In this document: one piece after another, positions 1-24,297 of the stretch
Numbering within the stretch: position 1 is the stretch's first letter
Layout: each line of letters begins with the position of its first letter
Assembly: GCF_002952055.1 (NCBI RefSeq)
Contig: NZ_CP021255.1
Location: 2,612,001-2,676,000, forward strand
DNA length: 64,000 nt
Origin: Desulfobulbus oralis
GTDB lineage: Bacteria > Desulfobacterota > Desulfobulbia > Desulfobulbales > Desulfobulbaceae
Reading direction: 5' to 3'
Notes under the pieces: model-generated
Told to the model about the DNA's origin: nothing
What the model saw: only the letters and a program-made list of their open reading frames with translations
Database searches by the model: none
Program-made: the position numbers and the translations under genes

Positions 1-744
1 CGGCGCCAGGAGCGGCGCTGACAGCGTGAAGTGGTAGCTGCCCCGACCAGTGCGGAAGGCGAAAAAGGCGAAAACCGGCGCGCCCGCGAGCCAGGCCATG
101 ACAAAGGGCGCGGCCGGGATACGGGCCCGGCCATCCAGAAAGCGCACCGTAAAATGCCGCTGTTCGGGCTTCAGCAGCACATCTCCCGGCATGGACACCA
201 CGCCGCCGGACTCCAGAAAGCGGATGCCTTCCACTGCCAGGGCCGGGTTGTTGTCTGCGGCCGCGGCCGCCAGCACCCGCACACCATCGGCCCTGAGCGC
301 CGCCTTCTGCGCCGCCTCCACGCCCTCCCGCTGCTTCTCGCCCATGAAGAGCAGCAGCTTCAGCTCCGGCAGCGCCTGGGGCAGCAGCCTTGCGGCCATC
401 TCCCAGTTGCCCAGGTGGGACATCAACAGCACCGCGCCCCGGGCCTGCAGGCAGCCTTTCAGTTGCTCCAGACCTTCGGTTGTGAAGTCGATGCTATGGC
501 AGCGCGCCCGGAAACGGTCGCTGTGAATGGTGGTAAAGCGCTGATATTGCAGGAAGACAGCCAGTTGCCGACCTGCGGCGGAGCGCTCCGGAAAGAGTCT
601 GCCGTAAAAACGCAGGCCTGCCTCCTTGCGCGGCGAAAAGAAAAAATAGCCGACCGCGACCAGCCGGGCGAATGCAGTCAGCAACCAGGGCCCGGTCACG
701 CGGGCGCAGCTTTCCAGCAGGCGGTACCAGAAGCGACTGTTCAT
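1..744 (-). CDS. LpxL/HtrB-type lysophospholipid acyltransferase (3' end outside window)
   Basis: This is the last visible gene of the leftward operon. It reads from an ATG at 744 to beyond base 1, so the C-terminus is missing. The visible ~248 residues have an N-terminal hydrophobic stretch and the motif SHLGNWE, the H-x4-E catalytic signature of LpxL/HtrB late acyltransferases (family knowledge). Such enzymes work at the inner membrane and transfer acyl groups to lipid acceptors; in aryl polyene loci a member of this family is thought to attach the polyene to its lipid anchor. The start overlaps the stop of the upstream glycosyltransferase (ATGA at 744-741), suggesting translational coupling. 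The family is well supported; the acceptor is inferred from context. Confidence 0.85.
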   Translation of the reverse strand, partial: MNSRFWYRLLESCARVTGPWLLTAFARLVAVGYFFFSPRKEAGLRFYGRLFPERSAAGRQLAVFLQYQRFTTIHSDRFRARCHSIDFTTEGLEQLKGCLQARGAVLLMSHLGNWEMAARLLPQALPELKLLLFMGEKQREGVEAAQKAALRADGVRVLAAAAADNNPALAVEGIRFLESGGVVSMPGDVLLKPEQRHFTVRFLDGRARIPAAPFVMAWLAGAPVFAFFAFRTGRGSYHFTLSAPLLAP

Positions 745-1457
745 CGCCGCCAGAGGTTGAGGAAAAAGAGCCGGGCAAACACGGCGCTGTTGCGGCAAAA
801 ATCGCGCCAGGGCCGGAAGTGGCTGATACGCTCGCCTTTTGGCTGATAGACCACGCTCACCGGCGCTTCAACCAGGGGCAGGCGCGCCCAGTTCGCCCGA
901 ACCAGCACTTCCACCTCAAACTGGTAGCGGCTGGACCTCGCGTCCAGGGCCAGCGTTTCCGGCAGCGGACAGAGCCGAAAGCCGGACTGGGTGTCGGCAA
1001 GCCAGGGCCCGCCGCAGGCCCAGACCCAGAAGTTGGAAAAGCCGCGGCCCGCCCGGCTGGTCCAGGGCACATGCTCGCCCGCCATGCCGCTCCGCGTGCC
1101 GATGACCAGGGGCCGCACGCTGCTGGCCGCGGCCGCTGCCAGAAGCCTGCTGCCGTCCGCCGCCCTGTGCTGGCCGTCGGCATCCATGCAGAGCGCCCAG
1201 TCAAAGCCCGCGGCCAGTACCGCGCTGAAAGCGGTTTTCAGGGCCGCGCCCTTGCCCCGGTTTTCCGCATGACGCAGGACGGTGAGATCCGCGTATTCCG
1301 GCTGCGACGCGAGTTCCGCCAAAAGGGCCGCCGTCCGGTCGGTCGAGCCATCATCCACCACAAAAAGCGGCAAGCCGAGCTGCCGGGCGTCGGCCAGCAC
1401 TGCGGCCAGCCGCGAACCGTGGTTATAGGCCGGGATGACCAGGGCTGCCCGCAGCAT
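741..1457 (-). CDS. Family 2 glycosyltransferase
   Basis: A 238-residue GT-A-fold transferase. It begins with the GT2 signature AALVIPAYNHG, followed by VVDDGSTDRT and a DxD-type metal/nucleotide-sugar motif CMDADGQH. There are no obvious membrane spans, so it probably acts on the cytoplasmic face of the inner membrane. Aryl polyene clusters encode a GT2, often fused to an acyltransferase (ApeJ); here the two are separate, overlapping genes. I chose the ATG at 1457 because it forms a TGATG junction with the upstream stop; TTG at 1463 and GTG at 1460 are in-frame alternatives. The sugar donor cannot be told from sequence. Confidence 0.88.
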   Translation of the reverse strand: MLRAALVIPAYNHGSRLAAVLADARQLGLPLFVVDDGSTDRTAALLAELASQPEYADLTVLRHAENRGKGAALKTAFSAVLAAGFDWALCMDADGQHRAADGSRLLAAAAASSVRPLVIGTRSGMAGEHVPWTSRAGRGFSNFWVWACGGPWLADTQSGFRLCPLPETLALDARSSRYQFEVEVLVRANWARLPLVEAPVSVVYQPKGERISHFRPWRDFCRNSAVFARLFFLNLWRR

Positions 1458-3136
1458 CACCAATCACCAAGCCTAGGACAAAGGGCCAGCGCCCAGGTGC
1501 CCGGCCCCATGTGCACGCCGGAGCTGAGCGAGAGCGGCGCCACCTGCAGCTCGCTGTCCGGCAGGATGGCCCGGATCTGCGGCGCCATTGCCTCGCGCAC
1601 CCAGGCTTCGTTGTCGCTGTACTCCAGCAGCAGCAGCTCCGGCCGGCCCTGCTTCGCGAGCGCCCGCAAACGCGCCAGCACGAAATCCCGCTGCGCGGCC
1701 TGACTGTGCGCCAGGGCCAGCCTGCGCACGCCTTCGGCCTCCGGGCTGATAACGGGCCTGATGCCAAGCAGACCCGAGGCCAGTCCGCTCAGCCTGGAGA
1801 TGCGGCCACTTCGGGCCAGATAGCGCAAATCGGCAATGCACACGTATTCCTCGCAGACTGCGCACAGCTTCCGGACAAATGCCAGCAGGAGTTCCATGTC
1901 CGCCAGCCGGCGCGCCGCCCGGGCCGCCATGAGGGCGATGACCGCCAGGCGGCCGGAAGCCGCGCCGCTGTCCACGGCGAAAAAGGACTGCCCGCCCTGC
2001 CCTGCCTGAAAGGCCGCGGCTGCCGCAAAGTTGCCGGTATAGACCGAACCAACCGCAAGATAGAGGACCGGCCCCGGCTGCTCCAGGGCGCTCTGAAAAT
2101 GCTGCCGCCGCTCGTTCTGCGAGGCCTGCGCCGTGCTGACGCGCTGCCCCGCACGCAGGGCCGCATAGATGGCGGCCGGGTCCCAGAGCGTCTCCGGTCT
2201 GGAGATGCCGCCGCAGATGACGTGGCTGTCCAGAAGTACAATGCCTTCCTGCCTGGCCAGCGGCCGGGGCAGCGACCCCGCGGCGTCGCAGAGCAGGCGC
2301 ACGAAACCCGCCTCAGGCGGCAGGGTCGCGGCCTGCATGCTTTCCGCATGCCAGGCCGTGATTTCGCCCACGCTTTGCAGGGCGGCCCGGGTGGCCTCCG
2401 GATCATGACTGTGCAGGTGCAGATGCAGAAGCCCGCCGTCCCGCCGGGCCACCACGCTTTCCCCCAGGGTGGCCAGCAGGGCCGCATCCGCCTGTCCCTG
2501 CAGAGTCAGATTGATGCAGGAGGCCGGATCAGCCTCCGCCTCCGGCAGTCTGGCCCTGAGCAGGCCGGGAAAGCGGGCGCCCGGCGCCTGCAGGAGCCCT
2601 TCGTCTCCGCTCCAGGCTGCAAAAAAGCCCTCGAAGAAGCAGAACAGGCCCAGCGCCCCCGCGTCCACCACGCCTGCCTGCCGCATTGCCGGCAGCATGT
2701 GGGCGGTGGCGCGCACCGCTCCTGCCAGCCTGTCCAGAATATCGGGGATGCTCTGTTCCGGACTACAGGCCGCAAGCCCGGACATGACATCCAGCATGGT
2801 GCCGTCCTGGGGCGCGAGCACGGCCCCGCGGGCCAGCCGGCTGCCCGCAGCACAGGCGGCAAGCAGCGCCTCCGGCCCGGCATCCTCTGCAAGCGCCAGA
2901 AGCGGCGGAAAAAAGGCCACGGCGATATTGCCCGAATTGCCGGTAGCGCCCTGTTGCAGGAGACTGCGGCACAGTGCGGCCGGACTTGTCGCATCGTGCA
3001 GCGGAGCCAGGGAAAGACGCAGATTCACCCCGGTGTCACCGTCTGCCACCGGAAACACATTGATGCGGTCCAGGAGTCCGGCCCGCGCCGCCAGGCGTTC
3101 GTAGGCAGCCGCAAAGGCCTGGCGCAGAGCAATCAT
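1457..3136 (-). CDS. DAK2-domain kinase fused to DegV fatty-acid-binding domain (FakA-FakB-like)
   Basis: A 559-residue two-domain protein. Residues ~1-200 carry the DAK2/FakA nucleotide-binding motifs NVFPVADGDTG (26-36) and QGATGNSGNIAV. Residues ~275-559 match DegV (FakB), with conserved segments such as LAVGSVYTGN, FFAVDSGAASGRL and a C-terminal VAPLSLSSGVHMGPG. In Firmicutes FakA phosphorylates fatty acids held by a separate FakB; here both parts are one polypeptide, so fatty acyl phosphorylation is a reasonable inference. It overlaps the upstream ligase by 4 bases (ATGA at 3136-3133) and so is an operon member. Its role in a polyene pathway is unproven; it may supply or recycle acyl chains. 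Confidence 0.85.
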   Translation of the reverse strand: MIALRQAFAAAYERLAARAGLLDRINVFPVADGDTGVNLRLSLAPLHDATSPAALCRSLLQQGATGNSGNIAVAFFPPLLALAEDAGPEALLAACAAGSRLARGAVLAPQDGTMLDVMSGLAACSPEQSIPDILDRLAGAVRATAHMLPAMRQAGVVDAGALGLFCFFEGFFAAWSGDEGLLQAPGARFPGLLRARLPEAEADPASCINLTLQGQADAALLATLGESVVARRDGGLLHLHLHSHDPEATRAALQSVGEITAWHAESMQAATLPPEAGFVRLLCDAAGSLPRPLARQEGIVLLDSHVICGGISRPETLWDPAAIYAALRAGQRVSTAQASQNERRQHFQSALEQPGPVLYLAVGSVYTGNFAAAAAFQAGQGGQSFFAVDSGAASGRLAVIALMAARAARRLADMELLLAFVRKLCAVCEEYVCIADLRYLARSGRISRLSGLASGLLGIRPVISPEAEGVRRLALAHSQAAQRDFVLARLRALAKQGRPELLLLEYSDNEAWVREAMAPQIRAILPDSELQVAPLSLSSGVHMGPGTWALALCPRLGDW

Positions 3137-4497
3137 CTTTCGGCAAACAGGGCCAGCATGGCCTCGCGGTCATACTTGCCGTTGGCCCGCATGGGCAGAG
3201 CCCCCAGCACGCGGATGAGCCGGGGCAGCGCATAGGGTTCGAGCCGGCGGGCCAGGGCCTGCCGCAGCGCCTCCGGCGAGGCCGTACCCGCAACCGCCGC
3301 GACAATGCGGTTTTCCCGGCTGCCGCTTTCCGGCAGCGCCGCCACAAAGGCGTCCTGCACCCCGGCCTGGGCCAGCAGCAGCCTCTTGACAGCGTCCATA
3401 TCCACACGCTGGCCGCCCACCTTGACCACCATGTCCGCCCGGCCCAGCATCCTAAACTGCGGCCCGGAGGTGGGCTGAATGCGGTCTGCGGTGTGAAACC
3501 AGCCGGCCTCGTCGCGGGGCAGTTCGGGCGAGAGGAAGGCGGAACGCACCATGAGGCGCTCGTCGGCCCCGGCCTGCCAGTCCAGCCCCGGCAGCATGGT
3601 GAATTCCCTTTCGCCGCGAAAGCGGTTTCGGGTGGCCAGACCGCCGGTTTCCGTGGAGCCGAAGACTTCGATGATGCCCAGCCGGTTGGCCTGAGCAAAG
3701 GCCAGCGCGTCGCGCTCATCCAGCATGCCGGCCGAGGAAAAGGCCAGGCGGAGCGCGCAGGGCGCCAGTCTTTTGTCGCTGGCCGCAAGGGCGTGATAGT
3801 GGGCCGGCACGCTGATGAAAACCGTGGCGGCCGTCTCCTCTACGGTCTTGGCCATTTCTTCGGGGAAGACGGGCGTGTGGGCGCAGACCGAGGCCCCGCT
3901 GACCAGGGGCAGCACCACGCCGTAGAGCAGGCCGTAAATATGGCAGACCGGCACGGTGGCCAGAATACGGTCACCGGCCCCTATGCCGTAGTGCGCGGCA
4001 ATGAAGAAGCCCTCGCCCAGAAGATTTTCCGCAGTCTTGCTCCAGATCCGGGGCGAGCCGGTGCTGCCGCCGGTGAACAGGCCCAGTATGCTGCCCTGCG
4101 CCGGATTCTGGGGCAGCGGCGGGGCGGATGCGGGCAGGCTGTCCAGGGCAAGCGGCTCCATGCCAGCGGGCAAAGGCCTGCCCGCTTCGGCCAGGGCAAG
4201 CCGGCAGCCGGCAGCCTCGTGCAGACTGGAAAGCGCGGGCAGGGACAGGGCATAGGGCAAAAGCAGGGTCGGCCCGCCCGCCAAGGCCGCCAGAATGGCG
4301 GCCGCGCACAGGGCCCGGTCCTCGCTGGCCAGACACAGCCCCTTGTGTTCTCCGCGCCGGGCCTGAAAATGCGCATGCAGCCGGGCAGCCAGCCGGTGCA
4401 AGTCGCCATGGCTCATGCCGCCCTGCAGAAAGGGCCGCGCAGCATCGGCCGGCCCGGCCAGCAGGGCGCGGCACCGCTCTCCCCCAGTCCCACTCAT
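3133..4497 (-). CDS. AMP-dependent acyl-CoA/acyl-ACP synthetase (ApeH-like)
   Basis: A 454-residue ANL-superfamily adenylate-forming enzyme. The AMP-binding P-loop is at residues 141-150 (FTGGSTGSPR), followed by an FGSTETGG motif and a C-terminal NGKYDR that carries the catalytic lysine of the mobile domain. It is shorter than typical acyl-CoA ligases (~500-550 aa), as is usual for the ligases of aryl polyene and flexirubin loci, which load an aryl starter or acyl chain onto an ACP. It overlaps genes on both sides by 4 bases. The enzyme class is secure; substrate and acceptor (CoA or ACP) are inferred from neighbours. Confidence 0.88.
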   Translation of the reverse strand: MSGTGGERCRALLAGPADAARPFLQGGMSHGDLHRLAARLHAHFQARRGEHKGLCLASEDRALCAAAILAALAGGPTLLLPYALSLPALSSLHEAAGCRLALAEAGRPLPAGMEPLALDSLPASAPPLPQNPAQGSILGLFTGGSTGSPRIWSKTAENLLGEGFFIAAHYGIGAGDRILATVPVCHIYGLLYGVVLPLVSGASVCAHTPVFPEEMAKTVEETAATVFISVPAHYHALAASDKRLAPCALRLAFSSAGMLDERDALAFAQANRLGIIEVFGSTETGGLATRNRFRGEREFTMLPGLDWQAGADERLMVRSAFLSPELPRDEAGWFHTADRIQPTSGPQFRMLGRADMVVKVGGQRVDMDAVKRLLLAQAGVQDAFVAALPESGSRENRIVAAVAGTASPEALRQALARRLEPYALPRLIRVLGALPMRANGKYDREAMLALFAER

Positions 4498-5756
4498 GCC
4501 GTCTCCCCTCTGCCGAAATGCTGGTCGCGCAGTCTCCGGCTCCTGGGCCGGAAGGTATGATCGGCCATTTCCTTCTGAACCACGCGGGCAAAGAGCCTGG
4601 CCATCTTCATGTTCTGCGGCTCGTCGGCGTAAAAGCTGGTCCAGGCGTAATCCAGCAGCTCCTGCAGGCGCTCCGCGCTCATGTGCTTCGGCTGATACAC
4701 CACCTGGTCTGCCGTGTAGCGACTCCAGTCATAGGTCAGAATGCGCCCCTGCCGGTGCAGTTCGTCAAAGGCCCTGGTGTGTGGAAAAGGCGTGAGTACC
4801 GTGAATTCAGCCAGATCAAGATCGATTTCCAGAAGAAAATCGATCAGCCGCTTGATGAAATCCTCGTCGTGGTTGTCCAGACCCAGAAGAATCGTGCCCT
4901 CCACGCCGATGCCATGGTCGTGGTAGCGCCTGATCCGCTCCCTGATGTAGTCCGAGGTGTCGAAGACCGCCTGATACACGTACCAGGCCCCGGCCCGCGC
5001 CGCCAGATCCAGCACCTCGGGCTTGTCCTCGATCGGGTGGGAGCACCACTTTTTCTTGAGCGGAATCATCTCGCGGAACAGATCCAGTTCCCATTCCGTG
5101 CTCTGCGCCAGGGAATTGTCCACGATGAAGAGCCTGTTGTTGTCGATGGCCGCCATTTCGGCAATGGCCTTGTCAATGGGCCGGGGCCGGAATCTGCGGC
5201 CGCCCAGATAGGCCACGGCGCAGGGATAGCAGTGAAAGCGGCAGCCGCGGGAGGCGTGCACCAGATCCACCATCTGCACGCCGCGGTAATTGTAGAGGTC
5301 ACGCTTCAAAAGGTCGCGCCGGGCCGTGCCCACGAGGGCGATGTCAGGCTGCTGGTCGAGATGGTTGTACACCGGCTTGAGCGCGCCTTTTCTGAAATCG
5401 GCCAGCACCTCTTCCATGCGGCCCTCGGCCTCGCCCAGAAAAACCGTGCCGTGCGCCATGCACTCTTCCGCGTGCAGCATGGTGGCAATGCCGCCGAACA
5501 TGACCCTGACCCCGCGCTTCCGGTACTCGTCGGCAATGGCCCAGCCCCGCTGCACCTGCACGGTCAGCATCATGCTGATGCCCACAAAATCCGTGGCCGC
5601 GTCAAAGTCGATGGCCTCCAGATTCTCGTCGATAAAGGTGACATCCACATAGTCGGGCAGGGCTGCGGCAAAGACCACCGGGCCGTGCGGCGGCAGGTGG
5701 AATTCGGTCTGGCGGCCCAGTTTGTGCCACTTGGGGTAAATCAGGGTGAAACGCAT
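4494..5756 (-). CDS. B12-binding-domain radical SAM protein
   Basis: A 420-residue protein. The N-terminal ~130 residues have the Rossmann-like layout of a cobalamin-binding domain (TDFVGISMMLT, RVMFGGIATMLHAEE). The radical SAM cluster motif follows: SRGCRFHCYPC with Cys172, Cys176 and Cys179 (CxxxCxxC). Enzymes of this class catalyse methylations or rearrangements at unactivated carbons, or unusual lipid reactions, in anaerobes. It lies between the acyl ligase (4-base overlap) and the DUF3261 lipoprotein (1-base gap), so it is co-transcribed with polyene genes. Canonical proteobacterial aryl polyene loci lack it as far as I know. The reaction is unknown. Confidence 0.87.
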   Translation of the reverse strand: MRFTLIYPKWHKLGRQTEFHLPPHGPVVFAAALPDYVDVTFIDENLEAIDFDAATDFVGISMMLTVQVQRGWAIADEYRKRGVRVMFGGIATMLHAEECMAHGTVFLGEAEGRMEEVLADFRKGALKPVYNHLDQQPDIALVGTARRDLLKRDLYNYRGVQMVDLVHASRGCRFHCYPCAVAYLGGRRFRPRPIDKAIAEMAAIDNNRLFIVDNSLAQSTEWELDLFREMIPLKKKWCSHPIEDKPEVLDLAARAGAWYVYQAVFDTSDYIRERIRRYHDHGIGVEGTILLGLDNHDEDFIKRLIDFLLEIDLDLAEFTVLTPFPHTRAFDELHRQGRILTYDWSRYTADQVVYQPKHMSAERLQELLDYAWTSFYADEPQNMKMARLFARVVQKEMADHTFRPRSRRLRDQHFGRGETA

Positions 5757-5757: not shown

Positions 5758-6429
5758 CTATTGCCGATCCAGGCGCTGGGCGGAGATGAGCCGCAGATTC
5801 AGGGTGTAGCCGCTGCTGCCCGGCGCGATCAGCTCCAACTGCGAGGGCATGAGGCCGGACTCGCTCGTGTATTCGCAGGAGTAGGCGCGCACCGAGCGGT
5901 TGCGGGAAGGGTCGGGATTGTAGGTGTGCAGCCGCCAGCAGCCGTCCCGGGTTTCCATGAGGTCGGCGGTTCCCCCATTGGCCGTTTCGTAGCGGCAGAC
6001 CCGGGCCCTGTCGGCCAGCTGGCCCTGCTTCACGATACCCAGGGGCGGAATGAACAGGAGCCGGATGTCTTTCAGCAGGTTTTCGGCAAAGTGCGGGCTG
6101 TCAAAGGGCGGCAGCGCCCGCACGACCTGGATCCCTCCCCTGCTGTCGGCCCGGGCCTCAAAGAGGGTCAGGCCTTCCACCGTGGTCAGGGCGGACTGAA
6201 TGCTCTGGCCGTGCAGAATCACGATGCCGATGACCGAACCGCCGCCAATGCCGCTGGCCAATCGGAAACGGATGGCGTGCACATACTGCCAGTCGCCCTG
6301 GGGGAAAAAATCATTGCAGGTGAGCGGCGCGGAAACAGGCTGCAGAGGCGCGAGCGCCGGCGGGCGCCGGGGCTCCCGGGCGCAGGCGGCCAGCACGAGC
6401 AGGCAGGACAGCAGCACAAGACGCTTCAT
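5758..6429 (-). CDS. DUF3261-type outer-membrane lipoprotein
   Basis: A 223-residue exported lipoprotein. The N-terminus is a lipobox signal peptide ending LVLAACAREP with Cys16 as the probable lipidation site. The rest resembles the DUF3261 family that accompanies aryl polyene clusters next to the LolA-like and MMPL proteins, where it is presumed to help deliver the product to the outer membrane. It overlaps the upstream LolA-like gene by 4 bases (ATGA). The lipoprotein call is firm; the family name rests on pattern recognition and position. Confidence 0.75.
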   Translation of the reverse strand: MKRLVLLSCLLVLAACAREPRRPPALAPLQPVSAPLTCNDFFPQGDWQYVHAIRFRLASGIGGGSVIGIVILHGQSIQSALTTVEGLTLFEARADSRGGIQVVRALPPFDSPHFAENLLKDIRLLFIPPLGIVKQGQLADRARVCRYETANGGTADLMETRDGCWRLHTYNPDPSRNRSVRAYSCEYTSESGLMPSQLELIAPGSSGYTLNLRLISAQRLDRQ

Positions 6430-8677: not shown

Positions 8678-8688
8678 GCGGCAGCGGC

Positions 8689-12193: not shown

Positions 12194-12267
12194 CAAGTCC
12201 CCCCTGCAACAAAAAAATGGAGTGTCTTATAAGTTGGACTTTTCATAACTGGACAGAGGGGGTGAAG

Positions 12268-14032: not shown

Positions 14033-14149
14033 GCGCACGCTGCCGCCGCAAAGAGGGACTCGTTCTCTGTAAACCGGGACTGTCTGCCAATGACGATGAG
14101 AAATACTCCTGCCAGGACCTGACAGTATGGGCAATTTTCGTGGACAGCG

Positions 14150-16822: not shown

Positions 16823-18073
16823 ATGCAGGGCCGGGGGCCGCTGATTGTCGGCTATGACTGCGTAACGCCTCTGGGCCTCGAGCTGGAAGACCAGTGGCAG
16901 GCGGCCCTTGCCGGCAAGAGCGGCATCGGCCCGCTGACCCGCTTCGATGCCGGCCCGGATTTTCCGGTGCGCATTGCCGGGCAACTGCCGGACACCGGGC
17001 ATCTGGACTACCCCTTTTTGAGCCCCCGGCAGCAGGCCATGTGGTCTTCGCCGGTCTTCAGGTATGCGCTGCTGGTGGTGACCCGCGCCCTGGAAAAAAG
17101 CGGCATCGAGATCGACGCCCGGCTCGGGCCCCGGGTGGCCGTGACCTTCAGTTCCGCGGTGGGCGGGCTGGACGCCGTGCTTGTGGCCGACCGCAACCTG
17201 CAGGCTGCGGGCAGACTGCCGCATCCCTATGCCAATCCCAATTCCTGCATCAACATGGTGAGCGGCAAGGTGGCCATGCATACCGGCGCCACCGGGCCGA
17301 TCATGTCCACCATCACCGCCTGCGCGACCGGCCTGAGCTCGCTCCTGACCGGCGCGATGCTGATCGCGTTGCAGCGCGCGGATCTGGCCATCTGCGGGGC
17401 CGTGGACTGTGCCGTGGTCGCGCCGATTACGGCCGGCTTCCACACCATGAACGGCATTTTCCACCCCAAGGACGAGGCGGAAAACGGAGCGCCCGAAGCG
17501 GCCAGCCGGCCCTTTGCCCTGCATCGCCGGGGCTTTGTGCTCTCGGAAGGCGCAGGGGCGCTGATTCTGTGCAGCCGCGACTTTGCCCGGGCCCACGGCC
17601 TCGGAGGCCTGGCCGAGCTGGCCGGCTGGGGCATGAGTTCAGACGCGCACCATCCGGTTCTGCCCCATGCGCCCACCATCGAGCAGTGCATCAGAGGCGC
17701 GCTCGCCGACGCGGCCGTGCCCCCGGAGCGGATCGATGTGGTCAACGCCCATGCCACCGCCACCAAGGCAGGCGATCTGGCCGAGTACACGGCGCTGCGC
17801 GCTGTCTTCGGCCGGCATCTGCCGCCGCTCTGCGCCAACAAGTCGCTCTTTGGTCATGCCATGGGCGCAGGCAGCGCGGTGGAAACGGTTTTTGCCCTGC
17901 ACGGCATGCTTGAGGCCCGGGTGCCGCCCACCATCAACTACCGGCCCGATCCGGAGATGGAACTGGACTGCGTGGCCCAGGGCGCGCGGGCGATCAGCCA
18001 GGAATTCGTGATGAAAAACGCCTTTGGCTTCGGCGGCTGCAACGCCTGCGCCATTTTCCGGCAATGCCGGTGA
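16823..18073 (+). CDS. Beta-ketoacyl-ACP synthase (FabF-like, ApeO/ApeR type)
   Basis: A 416-residue condensing enzyme with the complete Cys-His-His triad: Cys167 (TITACATG), His310 (VNAHATATKAGD) and His345 (NKSLFGHAMGAG). It closes with the FGFGGCNAC glycine loop. It should catalyse decarboxylative extension of the ACP-bound polyene. The usual GTxT after the first histidine is ATAT here, a mild deviation shared by some pathway-specific synthases. It begins 3 bases after the second radical SAM gene and ends 9 bases before the next ketosynthase. Confidence 0.92.
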   Translation: MQGRGPLIVGYDCVTPLGLELEDQWQAALAGKSGIGPLTRFDAGPDFPVRIAGQLPDTGHLDYPFLSPRQQAMWSSPVFRYALLVVTRALEKSGIEIDARLGPRVAVTFSSAVGGLDAVLVADRNLQAAGRLPHPYANPNSCINMVSGKVAMHTGATGPIMSTITACATGLSSLLTGAMLIALQRADLAICGAVDCAVVAPITAGFHTMNGIFHPKDEAENGAPEAASRPFALHRRGFVLSEGAGALILCSRDFARAHGLGGLAELAGWGMSSDAHHPVLPHAPTIEQCIRGALADAAVPPERIDVVNAHATATKAGDLAEYTALRAVFGRHLPPLCANKSLFGHAMGAGSAVETVFALHGMLEARVPPTINYRPDPEMELDCVAQGARAISQEFVMKNAFGFGGCNACAIFRQCR

Positions 18074-18082: not shown

Positions 18083-19348
18083 ATGCGTCCACCACAAAAC
18101 AGACGGGTTTTTGTAGTCGGCTATGCGGCGGCGACTGCCCTGGGCAGGGATTTTGCCACGACCTGGCGACGGGCCCTGGCCGGCGAGGCCGGTTTCCGGC
18201 GGCTCAGCCGCTGCGTGGTGGAGACGAGAAGCAATGTGGTCGGCGAAATCCCGGACTGGGACCCGGCAGCCCTCCCCGGCGTGAGCGCCAAGGAGGCCCT
18301 GGTCTGGAACGCGGGCTACATCTTCCTGACCGTGGAGATGTGCCGGCAGGCGCTTGCCGATGCCGGGCTCGAGATGGATGCCGGCAGCGGCCCGCGCACC
18401 GCCTGCCTGATCGGCTCGGCCCTGAACGGCTCCGACGCCTACCGCATTGCCATGGACAATTACACGAAGCTGGGGCCGCTCAAGGTGAGTCCCTACCTCC
18501 TGCCCAATCTCTGTGCCAATGTGCCGGCCGGCAAGGCGGGCATGAGCCTGGGCTTCACCGGGCCGATCATCGCGCCGGAGGGGGCCTGCGCCACGGGCAA
18601 TCACGCCATTGCGCTGGCCGCCCGCATGATTCAGGGCGGAGATGCGGACTTTGCCCTGGCAGGCGGCGTGGAGAGCTGTCTGATCCCTGAAATCATTCTG
18701 GGCTTTACCAACATGCTGGCCACGATCAAGGTGGGCGAAAGGGACCGGGCCTATAACGACCCCGGCCAGGCCAGCCGCCCCTTCAGCCTGGACCGGAAGG
18801 GCTTTGTGCTCGCCGAAGGCGCAGGGGTTTTGCTGCTCGCCGCCGAGGACTGCGTGCGGGAGCGCGGCCTCAGGGCCAGGGCCGAAATCGCGGGCCTGGG
18901 CTGGAACTCCGACGCCCACCACATTACGCGGCCCAGGGCGGACACCGTGGTCGCCTGCATGCAGGCCGCCATCGCCGATGCCGGGCTCAGGCCGGAAGAC
19001 ATCGGCTGCGTGAGCGCCCACGGCACCTCCACCAAGGCTGGCGACAGCACCGAGGCCCAGTGCCTGCGTGCGGTCTTTGGCCCCCATCTGCCCCAGGTGC
19101 CCATAACGGCCGCCAAGTCGCAGATCGGCCACAGTCTGGGCGCGGCGGCGGCCATCGAGGCGGCGCTGGCCATAGAATCCATGCAGCAGGGCCTGATGCT
19201 GCCCACGATCAATCATATTCCCGACCCGGAGCTGGCGGATCTGGACTTGGTCGCGAATCAGGCGCGCCGCCAGCACTGCGAGCATGTGCTTTCCAATGCC
19301 TTTGGCTTTGGCGGCACCAACTGCTGTCTTGTCCTGCGAGGTCTCTGA
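18083..19348 (+). CDS. Beta-ketoacyl-ACP synthase (FabF-like, ApeO/ApeR type)
   Basis: A 421-residue ketosynthase with Cys169 (EGACATG), His313 (VSAHGTSTKAGDS) and His350 (KSQIGHSLGAAA), and a C-terminal AFGFGGTN loop. All catalytic residues are present. It is the third ketosynthase of the operon, beside the KS-CLF fusion and the gene at 16823, so extension may be split between initiation and elongation enzymes. The stop shares a base with the next start (TGATG). Confidence 0.92.
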   Translation: MRPPQNRRVFVVGYAAATALGRDFATTWRRALAGEAGFRRLSRCVVETRSNVVGEIPDWDPAALPGVSAKEALVWNAGYIFLTVEMCRQALADAGLEMDAGSGPRTACLIGSALNGSDAYRIAMDNYTKLGPLKVSPYLLPNLCANVPAGKAGMSLGFTGPIIAPEGACATGNHAIALAARMIQGGDADFALAGGVESCLIPEIILGFTNMLATIKVGERDRAYNDPGQASRPFSLDRKGFVLAEGAGVLLLAAEDCVRERGLRARAEIAGLGWNSDAHHITRPRADTVVACMQAAIADAGLRPEDIGCVSAHGTSTKAGDSTEAQCLRAVFGPHLPQVPITAAKSQIGHSLGAAAAIEAALAIESMQQGLMLPTINHIPDPELADLDLVANQARRQHCEHVLSNAFGFGGTNCCLVLRGL

Positions 19349-19830
19349 TGCGGCCCAAACCTTTTCGTCCCGAAACCATCCCCGGCCTGGACTCCTGCTA
19401 TGTACGCGACGCGGCCACCTCTTTGGTCTGGCACCGCTCGACAGGCCGGGCGCTCTACGTGGACACCGACCGCTCGCAGGTGGTCTATCACGCCAACTAT
19501 CTGCGCTATTTCGAAATCGGCCGCGCCGAACTGATGCGGCAGGCGCAGTACACCTACCGGCAGATCGAGGAAAGCGGCTACATCTATCCCATCATCAGGA
19601 CCGAGCTGAACTACTACACGCCGCTCTACTACGACGACCTCTTCCATATCCACACCCGGCCCGCCAGGCTGGAGCTGGTCAAGGCGCAGTTCGACTATCT
19701 GATTACCCGGGCCGCTGACGGCGAAATCATCTGCACCGGTTTTACCCTGCACTGCGCCACCAACAGCAGGGGCATTCCCGTGGAAATCGACGCCAAAACC
19801 ATTGCCCTCTGGCAGGGTTTTCCGGTCTGA
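19348..19830 (+). CDS. 4-hydroxybenzoyl-CoA-type (YbgC/FadM-like) thioesterase
   Basis: A 160-residue hotdog thioesterase with the 4HBT signature YVDTDRSQVVYHANYLRYFEIGRAEL, here cited by its key residues: Asp in DTD, then VVYHANY. This family hydrolyses aryl or acyl thioesters; aryl polyene loci carry such an enzyme (ApeK) for chain release or proofreading. The ATG at 19348 overlaps the ketosynthase stop. The longer frame from 19060 is antisense-free but runs over the ketosynthase and is not used. Confidence 0.9.
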   Translation: MRPKPFRPETIPGLDSCYVRDAATSLVWHRSTGRALYVDTDRSQVVYHANYLRYFEIGRAELMRQAQYTYRQIEESGYIYPIIRTELNYYTPLYYDDLFHIHTRPARLELVKAQFDYLITRAADGEIICTGFTLHCATNSRGIPVEIDAKTIALWQGFPV

Positions 19831-19832: not shown

Positions 19833-20723
19833 GTGCTGGCCTTTTCCTATCCCCTGAGTCCGTGGCTGCACGATCACCGCTTTGCCGGCCGTACCGTTTT
19901 CCCGGCGGTGGAAAGCATGCGGGTGCTCCTGGCCGCCTATGCCGGGATGCAGGACAAGGACGGCCCGAGGCTGCCGCTGGTTGTGAGCGGGGCCCGTTTT
20001 CCGCACCTGATTGCCGTGGACAGGGCCGCGCGCAGGCTGGACTTTCAGGTCACGGCAGAGCCGGAGCCTGTTCCGGCCGAAGGGGCCGGGCTGGCAGCCT
20101 GTCCTGCGACCGCCACGGTTCTGACCCTGTTCTGGCGGAAGCCGCTCAAGGCCATGACCCGGCTGCTTCGGGTGGCTGAGCTGAAAATCAACGGCACGGG
20201 AACGACGGCCGGACCGCCGCCCCCATGCCCGGATGGCACCCTGGCGGCAGATGCACGGCGCATTCCCGCGGAACGCATCTACCGGGAACTGGTGCCTTTC
20301 GGCCCGGCCTTCCACAGTTTGCAGGGCGATTTGCTGCTGGCCGGCAGGGAGGCTCTTGGCCGGCTGCAGGCCCTGCCCGCCCCGGAGCTGCCCGGCGCCG
20401 ACTGGCTGGGCACGCCCCTGCCGCTGGACGGGGCCATGCACGCGGCCTGCGTCCACGGCCAGCAGCTTGCGGACTTTGTGCCCTTTCCGGTTGCCCTTGG
20501 CAGGCGCCGGATCTGCCGGCCCCTCCGGATCGGAGCGGATGTGCAGGTACGGGCGCGGCAGACAGGGCGCACGGCAGAGGCGCTGTTCTACGACCTTTGG
20601 CTTTTCCAAAGCGGCGAACTTGCCGAAGAGATCAGGGGGCTTGAGATGCGGGACCTGAGCGGCGGTGCCATCCGGCCGCCCGCCTGGCTGGCTGACGCCC
20701 CTAACCGGCAGGATTCGCCATGA
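19833..20723 (+). CDS. Stand-alone PKS-type dehydratase (double hotdog)
   Basis: A 296-residue protein resembling the dehydratase domain of modular polyketide synthases (PF14765-like). The N-terminal hotdog has SPWLHDHRFAGRTVFPAVE (catalytic His at 13 or 15), and the second hotdog has PLDGAMHAACVHG (Asp199), matching the His/Asp pair of PS-DH domains. It starts with GTG at 19833, 2 bases after the thioesterase stop. A discrete PKS-DH in a type II-like operon would be a third dehydratase beside the ApeP-like and ApeI-like ones. Catalysis is inferred from the two motifs. Confidence 0.72.
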   Translation: MLAFSYPLSPWLHDHRFAGRTVFPAVESMRVLLAAYAGMQDKDGPRLPLVVSGARFPHLIAVDRAARRLDFQVTAEPEPVPAEGAGLAACPATATVLTLFWRKPLKAMTRLLRVAELKINGTGTTAGPPPPCPDGTLAADARRIPAERIYRELVPFGPAFHSLQGDLLLAGREALGRLQALPAPELPGADWLGTPLPLDGAMHAACVHGQQLADFVPFPVALGRRRICRPLRIGADVQVRARQTGRTAEALFYDLWLFQSGELAEEIRGLEMRDLSGGAIRPPAWLADAPNRQDSP

Positions 20724-20770: not shown

Positions 20771-21136
20771 CTAGCCGCGTTCCTGCCATTTGAGCAGCCT
20801 TTCCACGCTCACGCGGGTAAGCCAGCGCAGAAAGATGGCCGTGTACTCCGCACCGGAAAGGTACATGCCGGCCAGAAAGACCAGGTGCGACAGGCCGTAC
20901 ACCACCGGCCCCAGCGCCGCCAGCCAGGGCAGGCCCAGATAGAAGGCCAGCGCGCAGAGGCCTGCCACCGCGGGCCAGCCCAGGGGAAAGCTGAGGAGGA
21001 TGAGCAAGACCCCCCCAAGAATGCGCAGGGTGGGCCTTTTTCTGAAGGCGCTCAAATCCGCCTGTTCGGCAATCGCCCGCTGCACATAGGGCCGGGCGGC
21101 GAGGCGGGCGACGAGGCAATGGACAGGGCGGTTCAT
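20771..21136 (-). CDS. Small inner-membrane protein of unknown function
   Basis: A 121-residue protein that I do not recognise. It has about two to three hydrophobic segments (LRILGGVLLILLSFPLGW; AVAGLCALAFYLGLPWLAALG; VVYGLSHLVFLAGMYL) and a basic, amphipathic C-terminus. The ATG at 21136 has an AAGGAAA ribosome binding site; longer readings begin in the intergenic DNA. It lies opposite to the polyene operon, tail-to-tail with the PKS-DH gene and divergent from the exporter. It could correspond functionally to the small membrane proteins of aryl polyene loci, but I see no motif that shows this. Confidence 0.6.
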   Translation of the reverse strand: MNRPVHCLVARLAARPYVQRAIAEQADLSAFRKRPTLRILGGVLLILLSFPLGWPAVAGLCALAFYLGLPWLAALGPVVYGLSHLVFLAGMYLSGAEYTAIFLRWLTRVSVERLLKWQERG

Positions 21137-21163
21137 GACGTTTCCTTGATTTGACATGCGGGC

Positions 21164-21192
21164 ACTATACCGCCGCACCTTTCCTACGGCAA
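21164..21192 (-). promoter_or_regulatory. Candidate promoter of the small membrane protein gene
   Basis: On the minus strand TTGCCG (21192-21187) is followed after 17 bases by TATAGT (21169-21164, 5/6), about 28 bases upstream of the ATG at 21136. It gives this reversed gene an independent transcription start. Confidence 0.4.
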
Positions 21193-21240
21193 GGCATAGC
21201 CCCCGGTTTTTTCACCGCTTTTTGTCCGAAAGGATGTGTG

Positions 21241-24200
21241 ATGCGTTTACCTCTTGCTCCCAGAGCCTGCCTTCTGCTGCTCCTCTCGCTTGCCGCCGCC
21301 GCCGCTCTGAGCTGGGCCGCGCTGACCCGGCTCCAGGTGGATACGGACATTGTCCATGCCATGCCCAGAACCGAGGCGGTTCTCAGGGATGCCATGACCA
21401 TCTTTGCCAGCCACCCGGTGCATGACCAGATTGCCGTGGACCTGGCCCTGGACGAGGCCGCACCGGACAGGCTGCTGGCGCTGGGCCAGGCGCTGGAGGC
21501 CAGGATGCGGGCCAGCGGCCTCTTTGCCCAGGTGGGCAACCAGGAATGGGGGGACCTGCTGCCGGAGCTGGTGGCCGGGCTGCCGGAGCGGCTGCCCCAT
21601 CTCCTCGGCAGGGAGGAGCTTGAGCGCGAGGTGGCGCCCAGACTGGAAGCGCAGGCCCTGAGCGCGCAGGTGGCGGCATGCGCCCGCACGCTTGCCGGCA
21701 TGGAGGGCATCGGTCAGGCGCGGCTGATTGCCGGCGATCCCCTGAATCTGCGGGAACTGCTGCTCGCGAAAATGGCTCCGCTGGCGCCCGTGCAGGGAGC
21801 CGTGCTGTATCGCGGCGCCCTGCTGAGCCGCGATCAAAAACATCTTCTGGTGACTGCCCGGCCCAGACTTCCGGGTTCGGACACCGGGCAGGCCCGCGCC
21901 CTCGCCGCCTTTTTTGCAGATGTCGAGGCCGGGCTGCTGGCCCCGCTCCGGGCCCAGGGCCTGAACCCGCAGTGCACGCCGATGGGCGCCTACCGGGCTG
22001 CCCTGGACAACGAAGAGGTGGTGCGCCACGATGTGGCCTTTGCCCTCCTGCTCTCGACCTTTGGCATTGCGCTTCTGCTGCTCTTCACCTTTCCCAGACC
22101 CTGGCTGGGCCTGCTTTCGCTGGTGCCGTCGCTTGTGGGCACGGCGGCCGCGCTCTTCGTGTACTCCCTCATTTTCCGCTCCGTTTCCATTCTGGTTCTG
22201 GGCTTTGGCGGAGCGCTGATTTCAATCACCGTGGATTACGGCATCAGCTATCTGCTGCTGCTGGACCGCAGGCACGAGACCCATGGCAAGGCCGTGGCAC
22301 GGGAGCTGCAATCCATCGGCGGCCGCATTGCGCTGCTGACCACGGTCGGCGCCTTTCTGGCGCTTGCCCTGAGCGGTTTTCCCCTGTTCGCCGAGCTGGG
22401 CCTGTTCACCGCCCTGGGTTTTCTGGGCACCTATCTCTTTGTGATGCTGGTGTTCCCGAAAATCTTCCCCGTCCTGCCGCCCGGCCCGGCCCGGCCCCTG
22501 CCGCTCAGAACGCTCGTGCGCTGGCTGGGTTCACGCGGCAGAGCGGGCGCGGTGCTGGCGGCCCTGCTCCTGCTCTTGCTGCTGCCCTTTGCCAAGCCGG
22601 TTTTTCACATCAGCCTGCAGGAGATGAACTCGGTTCGGCCGGCCACCCAGGCGGCCGAGGCCCGTTTCACCAAGATCTGGGGCGACATGGGCAGCCAGGT
22701 GGCGCTGATGCTGCGGGCAGACAGCCTGGAGCGCATGCAGTCCGAAAACGACCGGCTGCTCCGGCAACTCGCCGAAGACCGGCGGGCTGAGCGCATCGGG
22801 CCATACTTTGCACCGGCCATGCTCTTTCCGGGCGAGGAGCTGGCGCGGCAGCATCTGGCGGACTGGCGCGCCTTCTGGACGCCGGAACGGGTACAATCAG
22901 TGCAGGAGGGCCTTGCCGAGGCCGGCCGCAAGGCCGGTTTCGCCCCTGACGCCTTTGCCCCCTTTCTGCGGCTTCTGCACACCGAAAAGCTGCCGGAAAA
23001 CATGGCGCCGCCACCGGGCCTGCTGCCGCTGCTGGGCATACGCGGCGGAAACGGACAGGGCTATGCCCAGTTCATCAGCGTACGGCCCGGCCCGGCCTAC
23101 GAAGCCGCCGCCTTCTTTGCACGCTACCATGGCCTCGCGCACATCTTTGACGGCCCCTATTTCGCCGAGCGTCTGGGCCACCTGCTCTGCACAAACTTTA
23201 TACAGGGTCTGGCTCTGGTGGTGGCGCTGGTGTTCTTTTTTCATCTCGTCTTTTCCCTGAACCTGCGGCTGAGCCTGCTCACCATGCTGCCCCCGTTCTT
23301 CGCCTTTGTCTGCACCCTGGGCACCCTGAAGCTGCTGGGCCATCCGCTGGACATTCCGGCCCTGATGCTGGCCATTGTCATCTTCGGCATGGGCGACGAC
23401 TACGCCGTCTATACGGTCTATGGCTTTCAGCGCTACCTAGACAGCGACCATCCCTCGTATCTGCTGGCCCGCACCACGGTGTTCATGTCCGCCGCCTCCA
23501 CCCTGATCGGCTTTGGCGTGCTCTGCTGTGCCGAGCACCCTCTGCTGAAAAGCGTGGGACTGACCTCGCTCCTGGGCGTGGGCTATTCGCTGCTGGGCGC
23601 CTCATTGCTGCTGCCGCCGCTTCTGCGGCATGCCTTCCGGGAAAAGCCGCTGCCCGCGGACAGCCCCCTGCGACCGCGGGTTCTGCAGCACTTCCGTCTG
23701 CTGGAGGCCTATCCCCGCGTGTTCGCCCGCTGCAAGCTGGCCCTTGATCCCATGTTCCGCGATCTGCCGGAGCTTTTGGCGGAGAAACGCGACATCCACA
23801 CCATTTACGACATCGGCTGCGGTTTCGGCGTGCCTGCCTGCTGGGCGCTGGAACGCTGGCCCGGGGCGCGTATCTACGGCGTGGATCCGGACCCGGAGCG
23901 GGTGCACGTGGCCTCGCGGGCCGTAGGCGAGCGGGGCGAAATCCGGTGCGGCTGGGCCACGGACAGGCCATTTTTTACGGACAGGGCCGATCTCGTGCTC
24001 CTGCTCGACATGCTGCACTATCTGGACGGGGCCGCACTGGAAAAAACGCTGGATCAGGCGCTGAAGGCCTTGGCCCCGGGCGGTCTCCTGCTCATTCGCC
24101 ACTCCCAGAAGCCGGCGGGCCCGCGCAGTTGGCGCTGGCATCTGGAAGAACGTCGCGTGCGCCTGGCCGGACACGCCACCTTCTACCGCAGCGCGGACGA

Positions 24201-24297
24201 ACTGGCCGCCCTCCTCCGGCGCCGGAACTGCTCCGTGCTGCACAGCGGGCCCACGGCGGGCGACCCGGAACTCGCCTGGCTGCTCTGCCAAAGGTGA
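21241..24297 (+). CDS. MMPL-family RND exporter fused to a SAM methyltransferase
   Basis: A 1018-residue fusion. Residues ~1-800 are an MMPL-type RND exporter: a signal-anchor start, large periplasmic loops and two blocks of membrane helices (including IALLLLFTFPRPWLGLLSL and MLAIVIFGMGDDYAVYTVYG, whose paired Asp fit proton relay). Residues ~820-1018 are a class I methyltransferase with the SAM motif YDIGCGFGVPA (Gly at ~859) and VLLLDMLHYLDG. Aryl polyene loci encode exporter (ApeM) and methyltransferase (ApeB) separately. Start ATG at 21241 follows AGGATG. It closes the rightward polyene operon. Confidence 0.88.
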   Translation: MRLPLAPRACLLLLLSLAAAAALSWAALTRLQVDTDIVHAMPRTEAVLRDAMTIFASHPVHDQIAVDLALDEAAPDRLLALGQALEARMRASGLFAQVGNQEWGDLLPELVAGLPERLPHLLGREELEREVAPRLEAQALSAQVAACARTLAGMEGIGQARLIAGDPLNLRELLLAKMAPLAPVQGAVLYRGALLSRDQKHLLVTARPRLPGSDTGQARALAAFFADVEAGLLAPLRAQGLNPQCTPMGAYRAALDNEEVVRHDVAFALLLSTFGIALLLLFTFPRPWLGLLSLVPSLVGTAAALFVYSLIFRSVSILVLGFGGALISITVDYGISYLLLLDRRHETHGKAVARELQSIGGRIALLTTVGAFLALALSGFPLFAELGLFTALGFLGTYLFVMLVFPKIFPVLPPGPARPLPLRTLVRWLGSRGRAGAVLAALLLLLLLPFAKPVFHISLQEMNSVRPATQAAEARFTKIWGDMGSQVALMLRADSLERMQSENDRLLRQLAEDRRAERIGPYFAPAMLFPGEELARQHLADWRAFWTPERVQSVQEGLAEAGRKAGFAPDAFAPFLRLLHTEKLPENMAPPPGLLPLLGIRGGNGQGYAQFISVRPGPAYEAAAFFARYHGLAHIFDGPYFAERLGHLLCTNFIQGLALVVALVFFFHLVFSLNLRLSLLTMLPPFFAFVCTLGTLKLLGHPLDIPALMLAIVIFGMGDDYAVYTVYGFQRYLDSDHPSYLLARTTVFMSAASTLIGFGVLCCAEHPLLKSVGLTSLLGVGYSLLGASLLLPPLLRHAFREKPLPADSPLRPRVLQHFRLLEAYPRVFARCKLALDPMFRDLPELLAEKRDIHTIYDIGCGFGVPACWALERWPGARIYGVDPDPERVHVASRAVGERGEIRCGWATDRPFFTDRADLVLLLDMLHYLDGAALEKTLDQALKALAPGGLLLIRHSQKPAGPRSWRWHLEERRVRLAGHATFYRSADELAALLRRRNCSVLHSGPTAGDPELAWLLCQR

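What the first reader, a model, noticed from the sequence alone, without database searches (positions are those of the whole stretch)
1..24297. Aryl-polyene-like locus that carries four radical SAM genes
Seen: nearly the whole aryl polyene toolkit (ACPs, ketosynthases, CLF-like domain, FabG, ApeP/ApeI-like dehydratases, 4HBT thioesterase, ligase, acyltransferase, GT2, methyltransferase, LolA-like, DUF3261, MMPL) in two divergent operons. Four radical SAM genes (4494, 10830, 14770, 15821) are tightly coupled to them, two with B12-binding domains. Known: described aryl polyene clusters of aerobes and enterobacteria lack these. Inference: an anaerobe-adapted polyene-like lipid whose head group or chain is modified by radical chemistry.
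Basis: partly seen in the sequence, partly recalled or inferred. Interest (0 to 1): 0.85.

Follow-up and report, generated by a model that had tools for sequence, protein, structure and literature searches.

The report
Anaerobic aryl-polyene-like lipid gene cluster
A bacterium related to sulfate reducers carries a gene set that resembles the one for yellow aryl-polyene lipids but is tied to oxygen-sensitive radical enzymes, a conserved and chemically unexplored variant related to the still-unsolved ladderane-type clusters.

Summary
In detail: two divergent operons carry aryl-polyene (APE) homologues and four radical SAM genes (A 4494, B 10830, C 14770, D 15821) with an invariant CxxxCxxC motif. 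Only the DUF3261 label is weak.

The coupling is conserved. In 193 genomes of the order (Desulfobulbales, inferred; own genome included), 67 have D; all 67 have C, 65 the high-identity A, 64 the fatty-acid-kinase-like fusion at 1457, 52 a full B-class gene. With an ACP domain, A and D are the most conserved products.

Profiles match E. coli ApeC, E, H-M and O-R; ApeD/ApeF-like genes and two more radical SAM genes form a second operon, which joins the cluster in some relatives.

It is not without precedent: radical-SAM-rich FASII clusters of Kuenenia and Desulfotalea were described in 2009. B lies 3.4 bits under the TIGR04072 'ladder' cut-off, and A has 58-62% orthologues beside genes over that cut-off. 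C, D and the kinase fusion mark this variant.

Best reading: an anaerobic APE-type outer-membrane lipid with a conserved core modified by radical chemistry. Starter, product and radical steps are untested; no aromatic ammonia-lyase was found in this genome. New variant of a known kind.

The parts
1..798 (-). LpxL-type acyltransferase (ApeJ C-half homologue); continues 183 bases beyond the window
   Evidence: PF03279 E 5e-11; hhalign to ApeJ 347-551, prob 98.3; full ORF in L001
741..1463 (-). GT2 glycosyltransferase (ApeJ N-half homologue)
   Evidence: PF00535 E 6e-19; ApeJ 5-237, prob 99.9
1457..3136 (-). DAK2-DegV fusion, single-chain fatty-acid-kinase-like (FakA N/M + FakB)
   Evidence: PF02734, PF21645, PF02645; in 69 of 193 order genomes at E <= 1e-60, 64 of the 67 with rSAM_D; no Ape counterpart
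3133..4497 (-). AMP-forming ligase, ApeH homologue
   Evidence: PF00501; ApeH prob 99.8; best NCBIfam hit 4-coumarate-CoA ligase 120.5 bits, cut-off 334.7
4494..5756 (-). rSAM_A: B12-binding-domain radical SAM protein
   Evidence: PF02310 32.2 bits; invariant C172/C176/C179; 99 of 193 order genomes, in two identity classes, 73-100% and 58-62%
5758..6429 (-). probable lipoprotein in the place of ApeN; DUF3261 only at E 0.049
   Evidence: invariant Cys16 in 9 sequences; Pfam; ApeN prob 1.9
6426..7028 (-). LolA-like carrier (ApeL homologue)
   Evidence: PF03548; best NCBIfam model flexirubin LolA2 80.9 bits, cut-off 125; ApeL prob 95.2
7025..7759 (-). FabG-type ketoreductase (ApeQ homologue)
   Evidence: PF13561; ApeQ prob 100; best NCBIfam model plain FabG 278.9 bits over its cut-off, second FlxB 258.7 under its cut-off 340
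7760..8221 (-). ApeP-like dehydratase
   Evidence: PF22817 28.2 bits, cut-off 27; ApeP prob 98.2
8408..8677 (+). acyl carrier protein (ApeE homologue)
   Evidence: DSID motif read; ApeE prob 99.1
8674..10833 (+). KS-CLF fusion (ApeO + ApeC)
   Evidence: Cys146/His274/His311 invariant; ApeO prob 100, ApeC prob 92.5 to the C-part
10830..12176 (+). rSAM_B: TIGR04072-like B12 radical SAM protein
   Evidence: TIGR04072 356.6 bits, cut-off 360
12217..13892 (+). inserted HEC-01 defence pair (AAA + DUF4276, the second gene probably broken); not part of the pathway
   Evidence: PADLOC 658 and 163 bits; no hit in 13 of 13 relatives' stretches at E <= 1e-4; GC 0.51 against 0.66
14150..14773 (+). hotdog dehydratase (ApeI-like) fused to an ACP
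   Evidence: PF07977, PF22818, PF00550; ApeI prob 96.6; fused also in G004, G013, G021, two pieces in most other stretches
14770..15816 (+). rSAM_C: radical SAM with C-terminal conserved Cys set
   Evidence: invariant C40/C44/C47 and C247, C279, C280, C286, C289
15821..16819 (+). rSAM_D: radical SAM, with rSAM_A among the most conserved proteins of the cluster
   Evidence: 67-88% identity in 20 relatives; invariant C35/C39/C42 and C245, C278, C279, C286, C289; model best matched by TigE, BlsE, DesII
16823..18073 (+). ketosynthase KS2
   Evidence: Cys167/His310/His345 invariant; ApeR prob 99.8
18083..19348 (+). ketosynthase KS3 (ApeR homologue)
   Evidence: ApeR prob 100
19348..19830 (+). 4HBT thioesterase (ApeK homologue)
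   Evidence: PF13279; ApeK prob 98.6
19833..20723 (+). PS-DH-type dehydratase, no Ape counterpart
   Evidence: PF14765 E 2e-13; best Ape match prob 3.6
20771..21178 (-). small membrane-type protein, antisense to the plus operon, conserved
   Evidence: family F10 in 15 of 23 regions; no Pfam hit for the G001 copy
21151..24297 (+). MMPL transporter (ApeM) with C-terminal methyltransferase (ApeB-like)
   Evidence: ApeM prob 99.0, ApeB prob 77.4 to the tail

Best explanation
This is an anaerobic, radical-SAM-rich variant of the APE-type outer-membrane lipid clusters, sister to the 'ladderane-type' clusters. Shown by sequence: homologues of most of the E. coli ape set; four radical SAM genes kept with it across the order; a second operon (ACP, KS, ApeD-like acyltransferase, B12-radical SAM, SPASM-radical SAM) whose relatives stand in or beside the cluster in other genomes. 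Inferred: the ApeH-like ligase loads a starter acid on an ACP; the KS-CLF and the ApeR-like KS with ketoreductase and dehydratases, no enoyl reductase being recognised in the cluster, build a polyene acyl chain; the radical SAM enzymes (two with B12-type domains, C and D with a C-terminal Cys set that suggests an extra iron-sulfur cluster) modify the starter or chain by C-C bond formation, methylation or oxidation; the thioesterase frees the acid, which the DAK2-DegV kinase can turn into an acyl phosphate for the LpxL/PlsC-type acyltransferases; GT2 supplies a sugar; MMPL, LolA and a lipoprotein export the lipid to the outer membrane. That A and D are 75-88% identical where KS-CLF is about 50% suggests a constant radical-modified core on chains that vary.
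For: Homology map to ApeC, E, H, I, J, K, L, M, O, P, Q, R and, for the second operon's families, D and F. Same gene order in relatives, with exceptions told in the report. A, C, D and the kinase fusion: 63 genomes have all four of 73 with any, in 193. dN/dS about 0.10-0.33 for 12 cluster genes against G004 (the neighbouring RND gene 0.19). LolA's best model is flexirubin LolA2 and the ligase's is a 4-coumarate ligase, both under cut-off. In 7 of 8 cases an aromatic-lyase subclass lies within 5 kb of a classic TIGR04072 gene, and in four genomes that block is 5-8 kb from rSAM_D.
Against: No product known. No aromatic ammonia-lyase in this genome, and in only 18 of 193 order genomes. FabG's best model is a plain FabG. 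ApeG and ApeN counterparts not established. KS-CLF is missing from its place in two clusters of Desulfobacterales-type genomes (L126, L142), so the chain builder may differ there. 15 of 67 D genomes have no full B-class gene: 6 have a classic TIGR04072 gene instead, 2 a contig-edge piece, 7 neither. The model of D is of middling quality (mean pLDDT 74.9) and uncertain at both cysteine regions.
Confidence: 0.62

Rival explanations
1. The cluster makes polyunsaturated fatty acids or hydrocarbons (skipped double bonds), as proposed for Desulfotalea psychrophila, and not a conjugated aryl polyene.
For: D. psychrophila makes C31:8 and C31:9 hydrocarbons and has the FASII/SAM cluster syntenic with Kuenenia (PMC2649909); rSAM_A and B have relatives in the classic clusters.
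Against: The CrtD/CrtI-like oxidoreductase of the classic cluster (G037) is not among the genes of this cluster and gave no hit at the second operon; ApeH/J/K/L/M-type anchoring and export genes fit a membrane-bound ester better. The classic clusters, however, hold similar export genes.
Confidence: 0.2
2. It makes a cyclised, ladderane-like or otherwise strained lipid, radical SAM enzymes doing the ring closure.
For: TIGR04072 near-match; the Kuenenia clusters share radical SAM genes, a membrane protein likened to Mmp and a ligase.
Against: No ladderanes found in D. psychrophila; the link of these genes to ladderanes was never shown and heterologous expression efforts were not successful (PMC4790861 abstract); B belongs to a lower-scoring TIGR04072 class (337-402 against 561-626 bits).
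Confidence: 0.08
3. An ordinary APE cluster; the radical SAM genes serve cofactor or other unrelated metabolism and are only neighbours.
For: This genome has 32 radical SAM matches, so neighbours are possible; A or B can lie far from D in some genomes.
Against: Co-occurrence of A, C, D and kinase in 63 of 73; C next to D in 65 of 68 loci; 4-base gene overlaps between KS-CLF and B and between hotdog-ACP and C.
Confidence: 0.07

Closest known systems
Aryl polyene clusters, E. coli CFT073 apeA-R
   Same: Profile matches for KS-CLF, ApeR-type KS, KR, both dehydratase types, ACPs, ligase, GT2/acyltransferase, thioesterase, LolA, MMPL; weaker for the methyltransferase tail
   Different: Four radical SAM genes here (up to seven in and beside the cluster in G001), DAK2-DegV kinase, PS-DH, extra KS2; ApeJ split in two genes; MMPL and methyltransferase fused; ApeD/ApeF-like genes in a second operon here
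Ladderane-type FASII/radical SAM clusters (Kuenenia, Desulfotalea; TIGR04072)
   Same: B12-radical SAM of TIGR04072 kind, rSAM_A orthologue, SPASM-radical SAM relative, MMPL, GT, ACPs, KS in the classic clusters seen here; radical SAM, ligase and membrane protein by the 2009 paper
   Different: B 3.4 bits under the TIGR04072 cut-off; no CrtI/CrtD-like desaturase seen; D and kinase absent from 29 of 29 order genomes that carry only the 58-62% rSAM_A, none of which is in the C list either
Flexirubin clusters
   Same: LolA's best NCBIfam model and FabG's second-best are flexirubin ones, both under cut-off; aromatic lyase beside the pathway in some relatives
   Different: No lyase in this genome; gene content of flexirubin clusters was not compared here

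Membership tests
Aryl polyene cluster | KS with chain-length factor (ApeO/ApeC) | tested here: met
Aryl polyene cluster | second KS (ApeR), KR (ApeQ), dehydratases (ApeI, ApeP), ACP | tested here: met
   hhalign prob 96.6-100
Aryl polyene cluster | ApeH-type ligase | tested here: met
   homology only, prob 99.8; substrate unknown
Aryl polyene cluster | membrane anchoring and export (ApeD, J, K, L, M) | tested here: met
   ApeD-like gene in the second operon
Aryl polyene cluster | ApeN (DUF3261) and ApeG | tested here: inconclusive
   DUF3261 E 0.049 in 1 of 9, which printed the three best Ape matches of each family, no family reached ApeG above prob 1.5
Aryl polyene cluster | aromatic starter and conjugated polyene product | not testable with these tools
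   lyase absent from own genome, present in 18 of 193 order genomes; no chemistry
Ladderane-type cluster (TIGR04072) | TIGR04072 member over its cut-off | tested here: not met
   356.6 bits against 360; 50 order genomes have a copy of the same score class over 360
Ladderane-type cluster (TIGR04072) | phytoene-desaturase-like oxidoreductase | tested here: not met
   none among the cluster genes or by tblastn at the second operon; rest of genome not searched
Ladderane-type cluster (TIGR04072) | rSAM_A-type gene | tested here: met
   58-62% orthologue in 30 order genomes, 25 of which have a classic TIGR04072 gene; within 3 kb of it in all 24 same-contig cases
Ladderane-type cluster (TIGR04072) | ladderane or PUHC product | not testable with these tools
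   needs lipid chemistry

The most novel reading that the evidence does not exclude
The C/D radical SAM pair, rSAM_A and the DAK2-DegV kinase define an undescribed class of anaerobic bacterial lipid: an APE-type acyl chain whose invariant core is built or closed by consecutive radical SAM steps, and the evolutionary bridge between aryl polyenes and ladderane-type lipids, present in cultured sulfate reducers.
Probability: 0.35. Interest if true: 0.8.

Novelty: new variant of a known kind. Interest (0 to 1): 0.6.

Why it matters
APE lipids are among the commonest products of Gram-negative gene clusters, and how ladderanes are made is an old open question. A conserved cluster that combines APE machinery with radical SAM enzymes, in named culture-collection strains such as Desulfofustis glycolicus DSM 9705 (L089), gives a direct way to test what these radical enzymes do to an ACP-bound or membrane-bound polyene, and whether the ladderane-type clusters are APE relatives.

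Tried and rejected
Structure: rSAM_D was modelled (job, collected: mean pLDDT 74.9, pTM 0.80; the stretches under 50, residues 35-50, 241-256 and 258-284, are the two cysteine regions). Foldseek against solved structures gave TigE, BlsE and DesII as the only matches with E <= 0.001, TM-scores about 0.42 to the model: a radical SAM barrel, with no hint of the substrate. rSAM_A was not accepted by the busy machine, nor was B or C modelled. PDB sequence search with the D profile found two weak radical SAM matches (SkfB E 0.003; 5v1q E 0.0096). PDB searches with the methyltransferase tail and the hotdog-ACP listed nothing that I could tie to anammox clusters by its name.

The aromatic-starter idea for this genome was tested with PF00221 and failed, although it holds beside the pathway in some relatives. 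The RND-TolC-type operon at 24451-30225 was considered and rejected as a part: of the 23 regions, its genes are beside the cluster here, in G004 and in G013 only.

Counts: for the TIGR04072 classes I gave only part of the rows. One search got all rows of 300 bits or more plus three contig-edge pieces of 154-160 bits; the other rows of 139-295 bits were dropped. One search used the rows of 300-402 bits. Rows of 301-319 bits may be another subclass; the class border at 337 is by score alone.

Literature: 10 searches of an open-licence library only. 'aryl polyene' + 'radical SAM' + 'Desulfovibrio' gave 0 papers; 'aryl polyene' + 'radical SAM' gave 8, none with either term in its title, of which I saw the listing and, for two, passages; I saw no description of this cluster type there. 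The host name was not established: relatives' record titles point to Desulfobulbales; I considered Desulfobulbus oralis from recall of its genome size, but its paper was not held.
Full report
What is there. The window is bases 2,612,001-2,676,000 of a single-contig genome of 2,774,417 bases. Two divergent operons meet near 8.3 kb. The minus operon runs ApeP-like dehydratase, FabG, LolA, a probable lipoprotein, radical SAM A, ligase, DAK2-DegV fusion, GT2, LpxL-type acyltransferase, the last running 183 bases past the window start. The plus operon runs ACP, KS-CLF fusion, radical SAM B, (insertion), hotdog-ACP fusion, radical SAM C and D, two ketosynthases, 4HBT thioesterase, PS-DH dehydratase and an MMPL transporter with a methyltransferase tail.

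Radical SAM genes. PF04055 scores are 69 bits for B but only 20-24 for A, C and D. The CxxxCxxC motif is invariant in 15, 18, 23 and 23 aligned sequences of A, B, C and D. C and D each have five further invariant cysteines near the C-terminus, which suggests an auxiliary iron-sulfur cluster (inference). A and B carry B12-binding-type domains without the DxHxxG motif. A model of D (mean pLDDT 74.9; both cysteine regions uncertain) is best matched by the radical SAM enzymes TigE, BlsE and DesII with TM-scores of about 0.42.

Conservation of the locus. In 13 stretches from relatives the gene order is kept where the stretch is long enough, with these exceptions: G048 lacks B, G023 shows no MMPL match downstream, the 4HBT gene of G004 is matched in two pieces, and gaps occur (for example in G022 and G032). 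C and D are adjacent in 13 of 13. B is present in 11 of 13; G048 has a methyltransferase and a U32-peptidase-like gene in its place, and G054, whose contig ends there, has no B at E <= 1e-40 in the whole genome. In some genomes (G478, G378, G373) the lipoprotein and LolA genes are missing between FabG and A. Identities to relatives outside the host's nearest kin are about 75-84% for A, 78-84% for D and 71-86% for the ACP part of the hotdog-ACP, against about 41-52% for KS-CLF. D is found in 22 of 297 genomes drawn from the phylum, own genome included (one of them, G071, has only a 34% match), with 67-88% identity in the 20 relatives aligned. A scan of genome contigs found 293 stretches that encode relatives. 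The 80 best, all that were listed, bear titles of Desulfobulbales- and Desulfobacterales-type bacteria (one Desulfoarculaceae), among them Desulfofustis glycolicus, Desulfogranum japonicum and Desulfosarcina widdelii, or broader labels such as Deltaproteobacteria, Proteobacteria or 'bacterium'.

Co-occurrence. In the same 193 genomes of the order (own included), 70 have a match to the D query, of which 67 are D and 3 are C alone. All 67 have C; 65 have the A copy of 70% identity or more (lowest seen 73%); 64 have the kinase fusion; 52 have a full B-class gene and 2 more a contig-edge piece of it, 37 of these 54 on D's contig within 10 kb. 63 genomes have A, C, D and kinase, of 73 with any of them. 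121 of 126 genomes without D also lack the high-identity A. Fisher tests give p about 1e-42 for A and 4e-41 for the kinase, but genomes are related, so these are not independent trials. A is on D's contig in 38 cases, within 20 kb in 33. Against full linkage: in G453, G450 and G433 A and B lie more than 170 kb from D. Among the genomes without D, 7 have a full B-class gene. Eight genomes of the host's own genus in the draw have no D, A or kinase, two of them under 85% complete; this suggests gain or loss as a block.

Relation to aryl polyenes. I compared profiles of each family (4-23 members) with the 18 Ape proteins of E. coli CFT073, taken singly (the three best matches of each family were printed). 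Best matches, as probabilities: FabG-ApeQ 100, KS-CLF N-part-ApeO 100, C-part-ApeC 92.5, KS3-ApeR 100, KS2-ApeR 99.8, ligase-ApeH 99.8, GT2-ApeJ N-half 99.9, acyltransferase-ApeJ C-half 98.3, thioesterase-ApeK 98.6, LolA-ApeL 95.2, MMPL-ApeM 99.0, ApeP-ApeP 98.2, hotdog-ApeI 96.6, ACP-ApeE 99.1, methyltransferase tail-ApeB 77.4. The radical SAM proteins, the kinase and PS-DH have no Ape counterpart (best probability 6.7). The gene roles in E. coli are from Table 1 of PMC8253772 (passages seen). KS-type matches alone would not tell APE from ordinary FASII; the anchoring and export genes do.

A second operon. Relatives carry extra genes beside the cluster: KSIII, two B12-radical SAM, one SPASM-radical SAM, PlsC-type acyltransferase, ACP, GT25, polysaccharide deacetylase and, in G048, PagL. 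Five kinds of these (ACP, KS, acyltransferase, B12-radical SAM, SPASM-radical SAM) form a same-strand run at 910,882-915,723 of this genome with 49-74% identity to the genes next to the cluster in G001. The relatives' family profiles match ApeR for this KS, ApeD (98.9) for the acyltransferase and ApeF (91.2) for the ACP. In G453 all five, and in G478 and G378 four of the five (no B12-radical SAM there), stand directly upstream of the hotdog-ACP-C-D block. So the pathway here probably has at least six radical SAM genes in two loci.

Relation to ladderane-type clusters. Rattray et al. 2009 (PMC2649909; abstract, first parts of Results and Discussion and one review section read) described FASII clusters with radical SAM and phytoene-dehydrogenase-like genes in Kuenenia and Desulfotalea and noted similar ones in Geobacter and Pelobacter; D. 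psychrophila makes C31 polyunsaturated hydrocarbons and no ladderanes were found. TIGR04072 matches in the order fall by score into a class of 561-626 bits (33 genomes) and one of 337-402 bits (59 genomes, 50 of them with a copy over the cut-off), with further weaker rows; B here has 356. Copies of A at 58-62% identity occur in 30 genomes; 25 of these have a classic TIGR04072 gene, within 3 kb in all 24 same-contig cases, 5 have none; 8 genomes with a classic gene lack the low-identity A, 6 of which have D. Classic clusters in G037, G475 and G373 also hold MMPL, LolA, GT2, acyltransferase, KS and ACP relatives; G037 and G475 have the low-identity A and a SPASM-radical SAM; G037 has a CrtD-like oxidoreductase. 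The 29 genomes with only the low-identity A have neither D nor the kinase. In G373 both cluster types stand side by side. The present locus is thus a distinct sister class, linked to both APE and ladderane-type clusters. I could not compare with Kuenenia or Desulfotalea directly; that the classic clusters here are of the Desulfotalea kind is inferred from TIGR04072 and the desaturase-like gene.

Aryl or not. The ligase's best NCBIfam hit is a 4-coumarate ligase model, well under cut-off. An aromatic amino-acid lyase occurs in 18 of 193 order genomes. A subclass of 539-553 bits (8 loci) lies within 5 kb of a classic TIGR04072 gene in 7 cases, and in G461, G378, G478 and G482 that block is also 5-8 kb from D. 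This genome has none. An aromatic head group is therefore plausible for some relatives and open here.

Insertion. Between B and the hotdog-ACP gene this genome, alone of the 14 compared, carries a HEC-01 defence pair in a gap of 1,973 bases of 51% GC (flanks 66%); the partner gene matches only the first 126 of 190 model positions and is probably broken. Downstream genes are open, and dN/dS against G004 is about 0.10-0.33 for the 12 cluster genes compared, so the pathway looks maintained, though a recent insertion could still be polar.

Verdict. It works like an APE lipid pathway with added radical chemistry. As a member, it meets most APE features but has no shown aryl starter or product, and it fails the strict TIGR04072 cut-off and the desaturase feature of ladderane-type clusters. 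I file it as a new variant of a known kind.

Noticed in passing
window 12177-14149: HEC-01 anti-phage defence pair inserted inside a biosynthetic operon, GC 51%, with its second gene probably broken; absent from 13 of 13 relatives' stretches.
   Followed up: partly
window 20771-21178 (minus): Small membrane-type protein encoded antisense between PS-DH and MMPL, conserved in 15 of 23 regions, no Pfam hit for the G001 copy.
   Followed up: partly
window 24451-30921: RND efflux genes (membrane fusion protein, RND pump, outer-membrane factor) and a TetR-like gene directly after the cluster; of 23 regions also in G004 and G013.
   Followed up: partly
L040:12655-14798: In G048 a methyltransferase and a U32-peptidase-like gene stand where rSAM_B is in other clusters.
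   Followed up: partly
L158-L160 (G373): A classic TIGR04072 cluster with aromatic amino-acid lyase stands next to a cluster of the present type.
   Followed up: partly
L001:8741-10042 (minus), about 8 kb upstream of the window: Another radical SAM gene of this genome outside the cluster.
   Followed up: no
window 50000-54000: Second low-GC stretch (0.52-0.57 against 0.64 for the window) with open frames up to 1229 aa.
   Followed up: no
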